Assembly: GCA_947457975.1 (NCBI GenBank)
Contig: CANGYC010000063.1
Location: 1 to 10,173, forward strand
Length of the DNA stretch: 10,173 nucleotides
From: Comamonadaceae bacterium
GTDB lineage: Bacteria; Pseudomonadota; Gammaproteobacteria; Burkholderiales; Burkholderiaceae_C
Direction of reading: 5' to 3'
A program made the translations under genes and the position numbers. Of this stretch, positions 1 through 10,173 are shown piece by piece (within the stretch, counting starts at the first letter, position 1; every line of letters begins with the position of its first letter). A model generated the notes under the pieces. It made no database searches. It was not told where the DNA came from and worked only from the letters and a program-made list of their open reading frames with translations.

Positions 1-2475
1 CGGGAAGACGTCCGGGGCCGACAGGTACACGTCGTAGTCACCCGTGGCCGCATCGGCGGGAACGGTCACGCTCACCGCCTGCGCCGTGGAGGCCGTGGCC
101 TGCGGCGTCAGCGTGGCCAGGTTGCCGGCCCGTGCGGTGATCACCGCACCGGTGCTCTTGTGGCGCAACTGCACCACCAGCGCCCGGTCCGAGAACATGC
201 GGGACCAGCCGACGTTGCGCAGGTTCACGCTCAGCGGCAAGGTTCCGCCACGCCACACCTGCGTGTCATGCGTGGCCGAGTCCAGTTGGACGCGGTAGCC
301 CATGAAGCCCGACACCTGCGCGAAGCAGCCGCCCGACTTCCAGGCGTTGATCATGGCCGGGGCGTAGCCGCTGTTCAGCCACGTCAGGTGGTACTGCTTG
401 CCCTCGGTGAGGATGTCGTTGCAGGTGGTGCGCCAAGGGGTCTCGCCCTGGCAGGTCTCCCCGCCAAAGGCGGTCTGGGCCGACAGGGCCTGCACGTAGG
501 GACGCTGCGTGCTGTTCTGGTAAGTGCCGGTGTCGGTGGGGCCTGACAGGAGACAGTCGTTGTGCGCACCGGCACGCTTCTGCTGCGTGGGCGAGGGGTA
601 CCACTTCATCAGATCCGCCGGGTAGCGGAAGCCGATCTGCGTCGTGGTCGGCACATTGGCCAGCAGGGCGTCGCGCACGATGGCCCGGTTGATGTCAGCC
701 GTGGTGCAGGTGGTGCTGCCGGCGTTGTAGCCGCAGGAATTGCCCGACTTGGACGAGTGCCATTCGCCCCAGGCGCCGATGAAGCCGGCCCGCATGTGGG
801 GAATGACGTCGGCATTGGCCGCCAGCACCGGCCTGAGCTGCTCCAGGTGACGCTTGATCTGCGCCGCACTGGCGTCATTGCCGGTGGCGCTGAAGTCGTA
901 GTTGAACCACACCGTGGCCTTCATGCCCATGGAACGCAGGCTGGCAAAGCGCGTGTTCAAGGTGCTGAGGAAGGAGGCGGGCAAGTCGCTGGTGCGGTAG
1001 CTGTCCAGCTGCACCTTGGCCAGCACCAGGCGCATGCCGGCGTTGTAGCTGGACTGCACGCTGCCGGCGTCAAAGCCGTTGACGAAGTCGTTGCCGGCCC
1101 AACCGTAGAAGCCGCGGTCGGGGTTGGGGATGTCGGCGCTGGTGGGGCCGAAGCTCAGGTTGACGGGTGCGGTGGAAGGAGCGGGTGCCGGTGCCGGTGC
1201 CGGTGCGGGTGCGGGTGCGGGTGCGGGTGCCGGGGCCGTGCTGGTGGGCACGTACAGGGACCAGAGTGTGGGCGACCACTCCGGCGCGGAGTTCACATTG
1301 CAGTCGGTGACCGACAGAGGCGTGGCGATATAGAGCTTGCCCAGACGGGTAACGATGTCGCCCGAGGCATAGCGGGTGGTGGTGTTCCATTCCGAGTAAG
1401 CGACAGGCGCTGGTGCGGGTGCGGGTGCGGGTGCGGGTGCGGGTGTGGGTGCTGGCGCTGGTGCGGGTGCGGGTGCAGCGCCACTGACCGCCCCTTCGGC
1501 AGTGCGAAAGATGCTCAGGAACTGGTAGGCCGACTGAACCACGCCGGTGTAGTCATTGACCGGCAGCAGGCCAGCCGTGGACTGCGCCTTGTCACGTGTG
1601 AAGGCCCAGTAGCCCAGTGTGCCAATGCCGTTGGCTTTGACGAAGTCGGCCACGATCTTGGCATCGGCCAGCGTGAAGACGGTGCCATCGTCGTTCCAGC
1701 CGATCATGGGCGTGACACCCATCATCGCGTTGAGTTGCGCCAGCGTCTTGCCTGGGAAGATGGCCTTCATCTGGTCGCGCGTGGCATTGAAGGATGTGAT
1801 GGTGGCCTGCGACAGGGTGGCCGGGGTGAGCATGGTCTGGATGTTGTTGGCACCAAAGCTCTGCGTCATGGCGTTGACCATGCTCACGCGAACGCCCGCA
1901 TCCACGGCGCTTTTGACCACCTGCAGCGAGTTGGCGTTAACGCCGCGGAACCAGGCCGACAAGGTGAAGGAGGTGTAGAGGTCCGGGTACTTGGCCTGCA
2001 GGCGCAGCAACACGCGGTTGCGGCGGGCCGTGGCATCCACGTTGTTGAGGTTGGCGCCTTCAATGTCCCAGTCAATGCGGCGGGTGCCGGCGTCGACAAT
2101 GAGCTTGTCCATGAGGGCGAACATCTGGTCATCGGAGCAGGACGTCTCGACGTACACACCATCGGCGCCGCCCATGGAGATGGTGAGCTTGCCACCCTGG
2201 CTCACGAACTGGCGGGCATCGGGCAGGCGGCCGACCAGGCTGGCGTCAAGCACGCAGGAGCCGCGTGTGATGCCAAAGGCCAGGGCCGCGTTGTTCAGGC
2301 CCAGGTTGGTGCGGGCCTGGGACAAGCTGGGGGCCCACCAGCTCTCCACGTAGGGAAGGATCTCGGCGGCGCGGGCCATCTGGCTGACGCACAGGGCAGC
2401 GGCCAGGGCCAGGGTCTTGAGGGGCACGCGGCGGGCTCGTCGCTGGGCAGTGGCTGGGAATACGGGGTGTGACAT
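1..2475 (-). CDS. Secreted multidomain GH18 chitinase-like protein with CBM5/12, DUF4874 and DUF4832 regions (3' end outside window)
   Basis: The frame is open from the ATG at 2475 to the window edge: 825 codons and no stop. Residues 1-36 look like a Sec signal peptide: Arg-rich n-region, hydrophobic LALAAALCV, cleavage after ARA. Residues 38-325 resemble a GH18 barrel, with strand TISMGGAD near 98 and the catalytic DxDxE motif intact as D135-W-D137-I-E139. An Ala-Pro linker (about 333-358) leads to a CBM5/12-like module (about 360-409: Tyr-Ser-Glu-Trp start, GDIV, GKLYIA, EWSPTLW). A second Ala-Pro linker (about 414-437) follows. Next comes a DUF4874-like region (NPDRGFYGW at 451-459, IGAWGEWH at 566-573) and a DUF4832-like region (HND at 638-640, GGETC at 671-675, then beta-rich sequence). 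The GH18 family hydrolyses chitin or related N-acetylglucosamine polymers, and CBM5/12 binds chitin. The role of the DUF half is unknown; its Trp-Gly-Glu-Trp motif suggests carbohydrate handling. In-frame ATGs at 2520 and 2532 are alternative starts. 2475 is chosen because it gives a normal-length signal peptide. Confidence 0.85.
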   Translation of the reverse strand, partial: MSHPVFPATAQRRARRVPLKTLALAAALCVSQMARAAEILPYVESWWAPSLSQARTNLGLNNAALAFGITRGSCVLDASLVGRLPDARQFVSQGGKLTISMGGADGVYVETSCSDDQMFALMDKLIVDAGTRRIDWDIEGANLNNVDATARRNRVLLRLQAKYPDLYTSFTLSAWFRGVNANSLQVVKSAVDAGVRVSMVNAMTQSFGANNIQTMLTPATLSQATITSFNATRDQMKAIFPGKTLAQLNAMMGVTPMIGWNDDGTVFTLADAKIVADFVKANGIGTLGYWAFTRDKAQSTAGLLPVNDYTGVVQSAYQFLSIFRTAEGAVSGAAPAPAPAPAPTPAPAPAPAPAPAPVAYSEWNTTTRYASGDIVTRLGKLYIATPLSVTDCNVNSAPEWSPTLWSLYVPTSTAPAPAPAPAPAPAPAPAPAPSTAPVNLSFGPTSADIPNPDRGFYGWAGNDFVNGFDAGSVQSSYNAGMRLVLAKVQLDSYRTSDLPASFLSTLNTRFASLRSMGMKATVWFNYDFSATGNDASAAQIKRHLEQLRPVLAANADVIPHMRAGFIGAWGEWHSSKSGNSCGYNAGSTTCTTADINRAIVRDALLANVPTTTQIGFRYPADLMKWYPSPTQQKRAGAHNDCLLSGPTDTGTYQNSTQRPYVQALSAQTAFGGETCQGETPWRTTCNDILTEGKQYHLTWLNSGYAPAMINAWKSGGCFAQVSGFMGYRVQLDSATHDTQVWRGGTLPLSVNLRNVGWSRMFSDRALVVQLRHKSTGAVITARAGNLATLTPQATASTAQAVSVTVPADAATGDYDVYLSAPDVFP
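1183..1234 (-). repeat. Hexanucleotide array encoding Ala-Pro linker 2
   Basis: On the plus strand this is a run of GGGTGC/CGGTGC units, with four perfect GGGTGC copies at 1207-1230. On the coding strand it reads as alternating Ala and Pro codons, the flexible linker between the CBM5/12-like module and the DUF4874 region. The period of six keeps the frame, so copy-number change would alter linker length only. Confidence 0.9.
1411..1477 (-). repeat. Hexanucleotide array encoding Ala-Pro linker 1
   Basis: A second GGGTGC array, with perfect copies at 1417-1440 and degenerate units to about 1477, encodes the Ala-Pro linker between the GH18 domain and the CBM5/12-like module. It is in the same codon register and has the same unit as the array at 1183-1234, so the two could recombine without a frameshift. 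Confidence 0.9.
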
Positions 2476-2505
2476 AGGCTTGAACGTCTCGCGACGCCTC
2501 CTTTG
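2476..2505 (-). promoter_or_regulatory. Shine-Dalgarno plus tetraloop hairpin ahead of the GH18 gene
   Basis: In mRNA sense a strong AAAGGAGG (about 2504-2497) lies 21 nt before the ATG at 2475, too far for normal initiation. Between them is CGUC-GCGA-GACG (2496-2485), a 4-bp stem closed by a GNRA-type GCGA loop directly abutting the Shine-Dalgarno. Folding it leaves 9 nt (2484-2476), an ordinary spacing. That supports the 2475 start, but the pairing is an inference. Confidence 0.5.
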
Positions 2506-2653
2506 AGTTTCAGCAGACATGGCTTCGCCCATCACACGGTCGCCGGCTTTTCCGGCGGGTCCGCGGTCAAGGTGCGGGGGTGGACGCTGATCGGCCACGG
2601 CAGGTCTGCCGCGCCGTGCTGCAGAGGTGAGCTCAGCGTTGGAATGAATGCTA

Positions 2654-8399: not shown

Positions 8400-9215
8400 A
8401 TGACGGATTTTCCCCCAGAACTGCCCGAGCTTCTGCTGGACCAGCTGGCCCGCACGCCGGGGGTGCTGGTTCGGGTGGAACGCACCCAGGGCTCAGTTCC
8501 CCGTGAGGCAGGCACCTGGATGGGCGTGTTCGCGGACCACGTAGTCGGCACCATAGGCGGCGGGCACCTGGAGCACGAGGCCATTGCCCAGGCGCGCCGA
8601 CTGCTGCACGACCAGAGCCTGCCGGCCAACGCCCAACGGGTGGCCCTCGGGCCCTCGCTGGGCCAATGCTGCGGCGGCGTGGTGCACCTGGGCTTCGAAC
8701 GCCTGGCGCAGGGCTTGCCCGTGCCGCGCGAGCGGCTGGCGATGGCCCCCATGCCTGTGGCACTGTTTGGCGGCGGCCACGTGGGCCATGCCCTGGCCCG
8801 GCTGCTGCTCACCCTGCCCTGCACGCTCACCTGGGTGGACAGCCGCGAAGGCATCTTCCCCCCGGGGCTGCCTGAGCGCGTGCGCTGCGAGCATGCTGAG
8901 CCGGTGCATGACGCAGTGCAGGACCTTCCCGCAGGCTCCCAGGTGCTCATCATGAGCTTCAGCCATGCCGAAGACCTGGACGTGGTGGCCGCCTGCCTCA
9001 AGCGCCAGCGGGCGCACGGCGACCTGCCCTTCATCGGCCTGATTGGCAGCCAGACCAAATGGGCGAGCTTTCGCCAGCGGCTCCTGGCGCAGGGCTTCAG
9101 CGAAGACGAACTGGCGCAGGTCACCTGCCCCATCGGCGTGCCGGGCCTGCAGGGCAAGGAGCCCGAGGTGATCGCCGTGGCAGTGGCCGCGCAATTGCTG
9201 ATGCGCCGGGCCTGA
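8400..9215 (+). CDS. xdhC: Xanthine dehydrogenase accessory protein XdhC
   Basis: XdhC binds molybdenum cofactor, helps its sulfuration and delivers it to the XdhB subunit of xanthine dehydrogenase in the cytoplasm. The 271-residue product shows the family landmarks: GSVPREAG (31-38), GGGHLEHEA (53-61), LGPSLGQCCGG (83-93, with the Cys pair thought to handle cofactor), a Rossmann-like FGGGHVGHALA (123-133), FIGLIGSQTKWASF (211-224) and CPIGVPGLQGKEP (243-255). The ATG at 8400 gives a standard N-terminus. In many bacteria xdhC follows xdhA and xdhB. Here the upstream gene is an unrelated divergent lipoprotein gene, so the dehydrogenase subunits must be elsewhere, perhaps beyond the right edge. 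It points the same way as puuD, 186 bp downstream. Confidence 0.95.
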   Translation: MTDFPPELPELLLDQLARTPGVLVRVERTQGSVPREAGTWMGVFADHVVGTIGGGHLEHEAIAQARRLLHDQSLPANAQRVALGPSLGQCCGGVVHLGFERLAQGLPVPRERLAMAPMPVALFGGGHVGHALARLLLTLPCTLTWVDSREGIFPPGLPERVRCEHAEPVHDAVQDLPAGSQVLIMSFSHAEDLDVVAACLKRQRAHGDLPFIGLIGSQTKWASFRQRLLAQGFSEDELAQVTCPIGVPGLQGKEPEVIAVAVAAQLLMRRA

Positions 9216-9230
9216 GAACCGGCGAGCAAC

Positions 9231-9258
9231 TGGACGATGGCGACCGTCTTTGTATACA
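9231..9258 (+). promoter_or_regulatory. Candidate sigma70 promoter for puuD
   Basis: TGGACG (9231-9236), a 16-bp spacer and TATACA (9253-9258) form the best -35/-10 pair in this gap. The -10 sits in a TGTATACA palindrome (9251-9258), which could also be an operator half. Transcription would start near 9265 and leave a leader of about 137 nt before puuD. Confidence 0.5.
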
Positions 9259-9267
9259 CTGGCGCCC

Positions 9268-9312
9268 GATCGCAGCGGAGCCGGGCCCCCTGAAAGCCCA
9301 GGAGTCGCGGTC
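9268..9312 (+). ncRNA. Candidate NMT1-type xanthine/uric acid riboswitch aptamer in the puuD leader
   Basis: The RNA can fold as a hairpin with an internal loop. The outer stem is GAUCGC (9268-9273) with GCGGUC (9307-9312), 6 bp with one G-U. The internal loop is AGCGGAG (9274-9280) facing AGUC (9303-9306). The inner stem is CC-GGGC (9281-9286) with GCCC-A-GG (9296-9302), and the terminal loop is CCCCUGAAA. A hairpin with a conserved, purine-rich internal bulge is the reported architecture of the NMT1 motif, which binds xanthine and uric acid and is associated with oxidised-purine genes in proteobacteria. Position just after a promoter and ahead of a urate oxidase fits. I am matching architecture and context from memory, not a covariance model. 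Confidence 0.5.
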
Positions 9313-9394
9313 CCTCGCAGCTCACAGCGCCCGCAGTGGTGAGCCGCCCTCCGGCCGGGCCTTTTGGCACGCTGGAGCTGCTGAATAAAGGGAC
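9310..9394 (+). promoter_or_regulatory. Possible expression platform: anti-Shine-Dalgarno pairing in the puuD leader
   Basis: GTCCCT at 9310-9315 is the exact reverse complement of AGGGAC at 9389-9394, which contains the puuD Shine-Dalgarno (AAAGGGA, 9387-9393, 8 nt before the ATG). A G-U pair extends it to 7 bp. It shares 9310-9312 with the outer stem of the candidate aptamer, so the two folds exclude each other. Between them lie a 6-bp hairpin (GCTCAC 9320-9325 / GTGAGC 9339-9344) and a short GC stem (9346-9349/9357-9360) followed by CTTTT. Confidence 0.4.
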
Positions 9395-9401
9395 TCGCCA
9401 C

Positions 9402-10173
9402 ATGGATAGCTACCTGCTCGACTGGGCCAACCTGCTGCTGCGCTGGGTGCATGTCATCACCGCCATCGCCTGGGTCGGCTCCTCCTTTTACTTTGTCTTC
9501 CTGGATTCCTCGCTCACCCCACCGGTCGATGAGGACCTCAAAAAACAGGGCGTGAGCGGCGAACTCTGGGCCGTGCACGGCGGCGGCTTTTATCACCCGG
9601 TGAAGTTTGCAGTGAAGCCACCGCAGCTGCCGGGCCACCTGCACTGGTTCTACTGGGAAAGCTACAGCACCTGGCTCTCAGGGATTGCGCTGTTTTCCAT
9701 CTCCTACCTCTGGCAGGCCGGCACCTACCTGATCGACAAGTCCAAGATGGACTGGGCACCGTCCACCGCCGTGCTGGCCGCGCTGGCCTTCCTGGTGGTG
9801 TTCTGGCTGCTCTACGACCTGATCTGCCGCACCCTGGGCCAAAAGAAAAACGGCGATGCGCTGGTGGGCCTGAGCGTGCTGGTGCTGGTGTGCGTGGCCT
9901 CCTGGCTGGCCTGCCACTGGTTCGCCGGCCGCGCAGCCTTCCTGCTGGTGGGCGGCATGATTGCCACGGCCATGAGCGCCAACGTGTTCTTCTGGATCAT
10001 CCCGGGCCAACGCACGGTGATCGCGGACATCAAGGCCGGCAAACCGGTGGACCCGATCCACGGCTTCCGAGGCAAGCAGCGCAGCGTGCACAACACCTAC
10101 TTCACGCTGCCGGTGATCTTTGCCATGCTAAGCAACCACTACAGCTTCACCTGGAGCCACCCGCAGAACTGGC
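9402..10173 (+). CDS. puuD: PuuD, membrane-bound urate oxidase (urate hydroxylase), 3' end outside window
   Basis: PuuD oxidises urate to 5-hydroxyisourate at the inner membrane. Full-length members end in a cytochrome c domain that takes the electrons, so no peroxide is made. The 257 visible residues cover the N-terminal membrane domain. Predicted helices lie at about 10-34 (RWVHVITAIAWVGSSFYFVF), 85-108, 121-142, 153-172, 177-200 and 233 onward. Typical landmarks are the periplasmic HGGGFYHPVKF (59-69), LHWFYWESYSTWLSG (80-94), NVFFWIIPGQ (194-203) and HNTYFTLPVIFAMLSNHYSF (230-249), with several His and Trp residues suited to haem or substrate contact. The cytochrome c part is outside the window. 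The start at 9402 has AAAGGGA 8 nt upstream. Context with xdhC supports the xanthine-to-urate route. Confidence 0.93.
   Translation, partial: MDSYLLDWANLLLRWVHVITAIAWVGSSFYFVFLDSSLTPPVDEDLKKQGVSGELWAVHGGGFYHPVKFAVKPPQLPGHLHWFYWESYSTWLSGIALFSISYLWQAGTYLIDKSKMDWAPSTAVLAALAFLVVFWLLYDLICRTLGQKKNGDALVGLSVLVLVCVASWLACHWFAGRAAFLLVGGMIATAMSANVFFWIIPGQRTVIADIKAGKPVDPIHGFRGKQRSVHNTYFTLPVIFAMLSNHYSFTWSHPQNW

What the first reader, a model, noticed from the sequence alone, without database searches (positions are those of the whole stretch)
9265..9401. Candidate NMT1-like xanthine/urate riboswitch in front of a urate oxidase gene
Seen: a promoter-like pair at 9231-9258, then a leader that folds into two stems around a 7/4 purine-rich internal loop (9268-9312). 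From established knowledge: NMT1 motif RNAs are hairpins with a conserved internal bulge that bind xanthine and uric acid. Inference: this leader is such an RNA, placed between the genes for xanthine dehydrogenase maturation and urate oxidation, so it would sense substrates of the pathway. I cannot check the loop bases against the NMT1 consensus from memory.
Basis: partly seen in the sequence, partly recalled or inferred. Interest (0 to 1): 0.75.

Follow-up and report, generated by a model that had tools for sequence, protein, structure and literature searches.

The report
New riboswitch-like RNA before urate oxidase

Summary
The leader at 9265-9401 is not an NMT1/xanthine riboswitch: no RF03054 or other Rfam match, and the NMT1 core is absent. 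It is a conserved structured RNA with no Rfam match. A likely pseudoknot pairs GCGG(A)GC with GCCCGC. P1 and P3 covary strongly; the pseudoknot has some compensatory changes. Model R1 matches 140 of 250 genomes of the family, 88 of 141 genera; in an order-level draw of 399 genomes 14 match, 2 outside the family. Of 148 family loci, 139 lie before puuD (urate oxidase) and 7 before NCS2 xanthine/urate-type permeases. Four same-genus genomes carry both true NMT1 and this RNA, before different genes. Best reading: a new riboswitch candidate class sensing urate or a close oxopurine, probably acting on translation. Ligand and direction are untested; novelty in print could not be checked, because all paper searches but one failed.

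The parts
9251..9258 (+). TGTATACA palindrome: likely -10 element (TATACA 9253-9258) and possible GntR-type operator
   Evidence: 130 of 206 distinct leaders carry TGTATACA, mostly 16-27 bases before P1; the operator reading is recalled knowledge
9268..9273 (+). P1, 5' strand
   Evidence: covariation
9274..9281 (+). conserved J1/2 strand AGCGGAGC; 9275-9278 and 9280-9281 form the 5' half of the pseudoknot
9283..9299 (+). P2 variable hairpin (GGGC 9283-9286 / GCCC 9296-9299)
   Evidence: variable in length; mean folding z -1.83 over 173 of 205 parsed regions
9307..9312 (+). P1, 3' strand
   Evidence: covariation
9317..9325 (+). P3, 5' strand (one A-C mismatch, 9319/9345, in the window)
   Evidence: covariation
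9326..9338 (+). P3 loop AGCGCCCGCAGUG; 9329-9334 (GCCCGC) is the 3' half of the pseudoknot
   Evidence: tabulated in 225 sequences; pseudoknot complementarity 27 of 27 rows
9339..9347 (+). P3, 3' strand
   Evidence: covariation
9387..9393 (+). likely Shine-Dalgarno AAAGGGA of puuD
   Evidence: read from sequence
9402..10173 (+). puuD, membrane urate oxidase, runs off the window
   Evidence: PF06181 Urate_ox_N, 7.5e-116
8400..9215 (+). xdhC, xanthine dehydrogenase accessory protein, upstream neighbour
   Evidence: PF13478/PF02625, TIGR02964

Best explanation
A cis-regulatory, pseudoknotted leader RNA of puuD, most likely the aptamer of a new riboswitch class. P1 closes a core in which J1/2 (GCGG-N-GC) pairs with the P3 loop (GCCCGC); conserved unpaired bases around this pseudoknot would hold a small oxopurine, most likely urate, otherwise xanthine. 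Binding would change access of the ribosome to the puuD start, 3' of P3. Because the genes are the urate-consuming enzyme and a purine importer, I expect an ON switch. Shown: conserved fold, strand, gene association. Inferred: ligand, pocket, translational control, direction.
For: Covariation far above shuffled and slid controls: 27 rows, score 0.261 vs 0.166 shuffled; 100 rows, 0.350 vs 0.169, with 155 cells changed on both sides vs 60.5. G-U pairs (e.g. UG 21, GU 7) place the RNA on the + strand. Pseudoknot pair 9281-9329 is C-G in 213, U-A in 7, U-G in 4 and C-C in 2 of 226 sequences; 0 of 100000 shuffles gave as many U-A; L337 shows a second exchange, GCAG with CUGC (by eye). Spread: 140 of 250 family genomes. 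Genes: 139 of 148 puuD, 7 NCS2 permease (two of the 7 tested as TIGR03173); second set, 69 of 70 puuD and 1 permease. Platform hint: GUGGU, where the P3 3' strand begins, ends 17-25 bases before the start codon in 38 of 139 puuD leaders, 29 of the 38 with a Shine-Dalgarno core at -18 to -4; only 2 of 139 spacers hold TTTTT.
Against: No ligand evidence. Shine-Dalgarno access calculation is inconclusive (130 leaders: up in 26%, down in 16%). Two of 148 loci precede genes not clearly tied to urate (Lumazine_bd_2 protein, L088; Peripla_BP_6 protein, L098). Pseudoknot covariation rests mainly on one position; the model-fitted alignment A2 counts only 2 U-A cells, with 59 of 500 shuffles also reaching its count of covarying pairs, and 3 sequences break the first pair. 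Narrow range: essentially one family. Some puuD leaders lack the RNA. Single-sequence folding of the window shows nothing unusual.
Confidence: 0.68

Rival explanations
1. NMT1 (RF03054) xanthine riboswitch.
For: Same pathway; true NMT1 copies exist in relatives.
Against: No match at gathering score or at E up to 10; NMT1 core strands absent; architecture differs (P3 and pseudoknot); G004, G006, G012 and G015 carry both RNAs, before different genes.
Confidence: 0.01
2. A protein-binding leader: the hairpin/pseudoknot is the site of an RNA-binding protein (autoregulation or a global regulator), with no small ligand.
For: A conserved hairpin loop not far from the start codon would suit a repressor site; no ligand is known.
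Against: Conserved bases spread over J1/2, P3 loop and pseudoknot look like an aptamer core; puuD and unrelated permeases share it, so simple autoregulation by PuuD is unlikely.
Confidence: 0.16
3. A riboswitch for a metabolite other than an oxopurine (e.g. a cofactor or pterin-like compound).
For: One copy precedes a Lumazine_bd_2 protein and one an ABC-type binding protein.
Against: 146 of 148 copies precede urate oxidase or NCS2 xanthine/urate-type permease genes.
Confidence: 0.12
4. A separate small RNA or DNA-level operator that happens to lie before puuD.
For: A conserved palindrome TGTATACA lies just upstream.
Against: Compensatory changes and G-U pairs show selection on RNA pairing on the + strand; in 138 of 139 puuD loci the GUGGU element lies within 100 bases of the start codon.
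Confidence: 0.03

Closest known systems
NMT1 / xanthine riboswitch (Rfam RF03054; Yu and Breaker 2020, PMC7373994)
   Same: Proteobacterial leader RNA tied to purine oxidation; [quoted passage not shown] section 5).
   Different: NMT1 is a P1/P2a/P2b rod with conserved GAGUAGAAGCG and GGGACAUUGCUC strands (passages of PMC8266621); this RNA has P1, variable P2, P3 and a J1/2-P3-loop pseudoknot with a different core. The NMT1 gene types listed in section 5 of PMC7373994 do not include urate oxidase, and the held main text mentions urate oxidase once, in a reference title.
Xanthine-sensing variants of the guanine riboswitch (PMC9295807, passages seen)
   Same: Leader RNA that senses an oxopurine.
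   Different: They belong to the guanine riboswitch class (its three-way-junction fold is recalled); the Rfam scans here gave no purine riboswitch match.
Pseudoknot riboswitches in general (recalled)
   Same: Ligand core formed where a junction strand pairs with a distant loop, near the ribosome-binding site.
   Different: No match to any such Rfam family in the scans made.

Membership tests
NMT1/xanthine riboswitch RF03054 | Covariance-model score at or above 36 bits | tested here: not met
   no match in the window; none at E up to 10 on 9100-9600; none in own genome
NMT1/xanthine riboswitch RF03054 | Conserved GAGUAGAAGCG and GGGACAUUGCUC strands around the junction | tested here: not met
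   consensus compared by eye with window 9262-9352 and A1
NMT1/xanthine riboswitch RF03054 | Binds xanthine/uric acid | not testable with these tools
   needs in-line probing or ITC
Riboswitch (general) | Conserved structured RNA in a 5' leader, supported by covariation | tested here: met
Riboswitch (general) | Consistent association with genes of one pathway across many genera | tested here: met
   139 puuD and 7 permease of 148 loci, 88 of 141 genera
Riboswitch (general) | Recognisable expression platform | tested here: inconclusive
   no consistent change of Shine-Dalgarno access; TTTTT in 2 of 139 spacers, so no general terminator
Riboswitch (general) | Selective ligand binding that changes expression | not testable with these tools
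   needs bench work
New puuD-leader RNA family (models R1/R2) | Window copy matches the model | tested here: met
   72.1 bits with R1 and 64.1 with R2, but the window is in the training set of both

The most novel reading that the evidence does not exclude
A previously undescribed riboswitch class, with its own pseudoknotted fold, that senses urate itself and switches on urate oxidation and purine uptake in Comamonadaceae-type Burkholderiales, working in the same cells as the unrelated NMT1 xanthine riboswitch.
Probability: 0.4. Interest if true: 0.85.

Novelty: new variant of a known kind. Interest (0 to 1): 0.77.

Why it matters
If the ligand is urate or xanthine, nature would have evolved a further, structurally unrelated RNA pocket for an oxidised purine, and a compact urate sensor would be available for biosensors and for studying how RNAs tell urate from xanthine. 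Even without a ligand, it defines a regulatory RNA family with 229 distinct sequences collected here that can be tested at once, since cultured bacteria such as Comamonas testosteroni carry it (L238, L280).

Tried and rejected
NMT1 membership: rejected by covariance model and core sequence. Single-sequence energies say nothing, so the case rests on comparative data. Terminator-type platform: TTTTT occurs in 2 of 139 spacers (L165, L190); the one terminator-like hit in the window region lies at the promoter. Shine-Dalgarno sequestration: no consistent direction. The first pseudoknot count was spoiled by an ambiguous anchor in my script and was replaced. Wider range: class draw 3 of 321 and phylum draw 9 of 349 genomes match, all in the window's family; these used stricter filters that can lose weak matches. 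Downstream genes were read only for the 68, plus L204 and L213.

Rows dropped: L191, L196 and L201 of 229 distinct sequences; only leaders that parsed, 130, 173 of 205 parsed P2 regions were long enough to fold; A2 holds 100 chosen sources, not all that were then in hand.

Literature: one search listing succeeded. So 'not in print' is not claimed.

Full report
The window ends with xdhC (8400-9215; XdhC_C and XdhC_CoxI; TIGR02964) and the first 257 codons of puuD (from 9402; Urate_ox_N, E 7.5e-116). Between them lie 186 bases.

NMT1 test. cmscan of the whole window finds no family at gathering score; a permissive scan of 9100-9600 finds only two chance-level matches, neither NMT1. RF03054 searched in 61 genomes finds none in the window's own genome (77.8% complete) and four genomes over the cut-off, all of the same genus, plus one of another family below it. 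The true copies show the consensus GAGUAGAAGCG...GGGACAUUGCUC, which the window lacks. The proteins downstream of them look like Rieske-type dioxygenases (L001+, L002, L003) and NMT1/THI5-like binding proteins (L001-, L004) (named by eye), gene types that section 5 of PMC7373994 lists for NMT1.

What is there instead. A DNA search with 9200-9420 returned, besides longer matches, 23-28 base matches inside 9320-9347 kept at 93-100% identity in leaders whose surroundings had diverged. This is a hairpin, GCUCAC-AGCGCCCGCAGUG-GUGAGC, whose stem changes in step while its loop stays. Reading the leaders of 30 puuD loci and aligning 27 RNAs gave the architecture: P1, conserved strand MGCGGNGC, variable P2, P1 closing strand, P3.

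Statistics. In A1 (27 rows) P1, P3 and pseudoknot together have 95.9% paired cells and a covariation score of 0.261 against 0.166 in shuffles; slid structures reach 0.037-0.093. In A2 (100 chosen sources, fitted to model R1, so leaning towards it) P1 and P3 have 92.4% paired cells, 11 of 15 pairs with two-sided changes and a score of 0.350 against 0.169 shuffled and 0.057-0.086 slid. G-U pairs fix the + strand.

Pseudoknot. GCGG-N-GC of J1/2 is complementary to GCCCGC of the P3 loop in 27 of 27 rows, without variation. In 226 distinct sequences (3 of 229 dropped) the last pair is C-G 213, U-A 7, U-G 4, C-C 2; all 7 sequences with A at the 3' position have U at the other. They come from four genera by their handles. 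One more sequence, L337, reads GCAG against CUGC (by eye). Against this, on the unrefined A2, sees only two U-A cells and weak significance, and three sequences break the first pair. I take the pseudoknot as likely, about 90%.

Range. R1 hits 148 places in 140 of 250 genomes of the family and 88 of 141 genera. R2 hits 14 of 399 genomes drawn from the order: the window's own, 11 others of the family and 2 of one other family; 3 of 321 from the class and 9 of 349 from the phylum, all in the family. A pattern scan of named genomes stopped at 120 stretches, of which 101 match R2 strongly, among them Comamonas, Variovorax, Limnohabitans, Polaromonas, Hydrogenophaga, Acidovorax, Delftia, Massilia, Achromobacter and Pigmentiphaga. 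The window is probably from Polaromonas: same-genus contig G004:C1 and NZ_NBZV01000001.1 of Polaromonas sp. AER18D-145 have the same length, 299304, and a 140-base stretch of L015 occurs exactly in L232.

Genes. Of the 148 loci, 139 have puuD downstream, 7 an NCS2 permease (two tested, TIGR03173 xanthine permease; five by likeness), 1 a Lumazine_bd_2 protein and 1 a Peripla_BP_6 protein; 69 have xdhC within 500 bases upstream. In L099 the permease copy lies behind a gene that reads like 5-hydroxyisourate hydrolase (by eye). In the second set 69 of 70 are puuD and 1 permease. Of 20 of the 110 RNA-negative family genomes, 12 have puuD, as do 15 of 15 RNA-positive ones tested. Of 8 of those 12 whose leaders I examined, two carry diverged copies that the fast filters missed (L337, L346); in four (L343, L349, L351, L352) xdhC ends so close to puuD that there is little room for a leader; L341 and L347 have none for no evident reason. 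Five same-genus puuD loci (L030, L031, L034-L036) show no match at E below 0.1; before three of them the sequence reads like an operonic upstream gene (by eye).

Mechanism. TGTATACA occurs in 130 of 206 distinct leaders, mostly 16-27 bases before P1, so transcripts should begin near P1. GUGGU, where the P3 3' strand begins, ends 17-25 bases before the start codon in 38 of 139 leaders and within 100 in 138; 29 of the 38 have a Shine-Dalgarno core at -18 to -4 (83 of all 139); TTTTT occurs in 2 of 139 spacers. This points to translation rather than termination. A fold calculation comparing free and aptamer-constrained leaders moved Shine-Dalgarno access up in 26% and down in 16% of 130: a faint lean towards ON, not evidence. 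Substrate logic (urate oxidase plus importer) also suggests ON with urate.

Novelty. No Rfam match in the window, in eight other loci at gathering score, or above chance in two members scanned permissively. The papers seen (PMC7373994: start of abstract, section 5, passages; PMC8266621 and PMC9295807: passages) describe other RNAs. All literature searches but one failed, so publication under another name is possible.

Noticed in passing
window 9251-9258 and leaders among L056-L293: TGTATACA palindrome conserved before the RNA; besides a -10 box it may be a GntR-family operator, which would mean double control of puuD.
   Followed up: partly
L001 1370-1432(-) and 1501-1560(+): Two divergent true NMT1 xanthine riboswitches between a Rieske-like dioxygenase gene and an NMT1/THI5-like binding-protein gene, in a same-genus genome that also carries the new RNA (L026).
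   Followed up: partly
L088 2501-2597(-): A copy of the RNA before a Lumazine_bd_2 (PF12893) protein, in a genome with three copies.
   Followed up: partly
L098 301-377(+): A copy of the RNA before a Peripla_BP_6 ABC-type substrate-binding protein: possibly a urate-related uptake gene.
   Followed up: no
L347 upstream of puuD: A puuD leader with the TGTATACA box but without the RNA: a natural comparison for testing promoter control alone.
   Followed up: no
window 1-2598 (-): Long open frame with proline/alanine/threonine-rich repeats between two parts that read, by eye, like a chitinase-type domain and a DUF4832-like domain.
   Followed up: no
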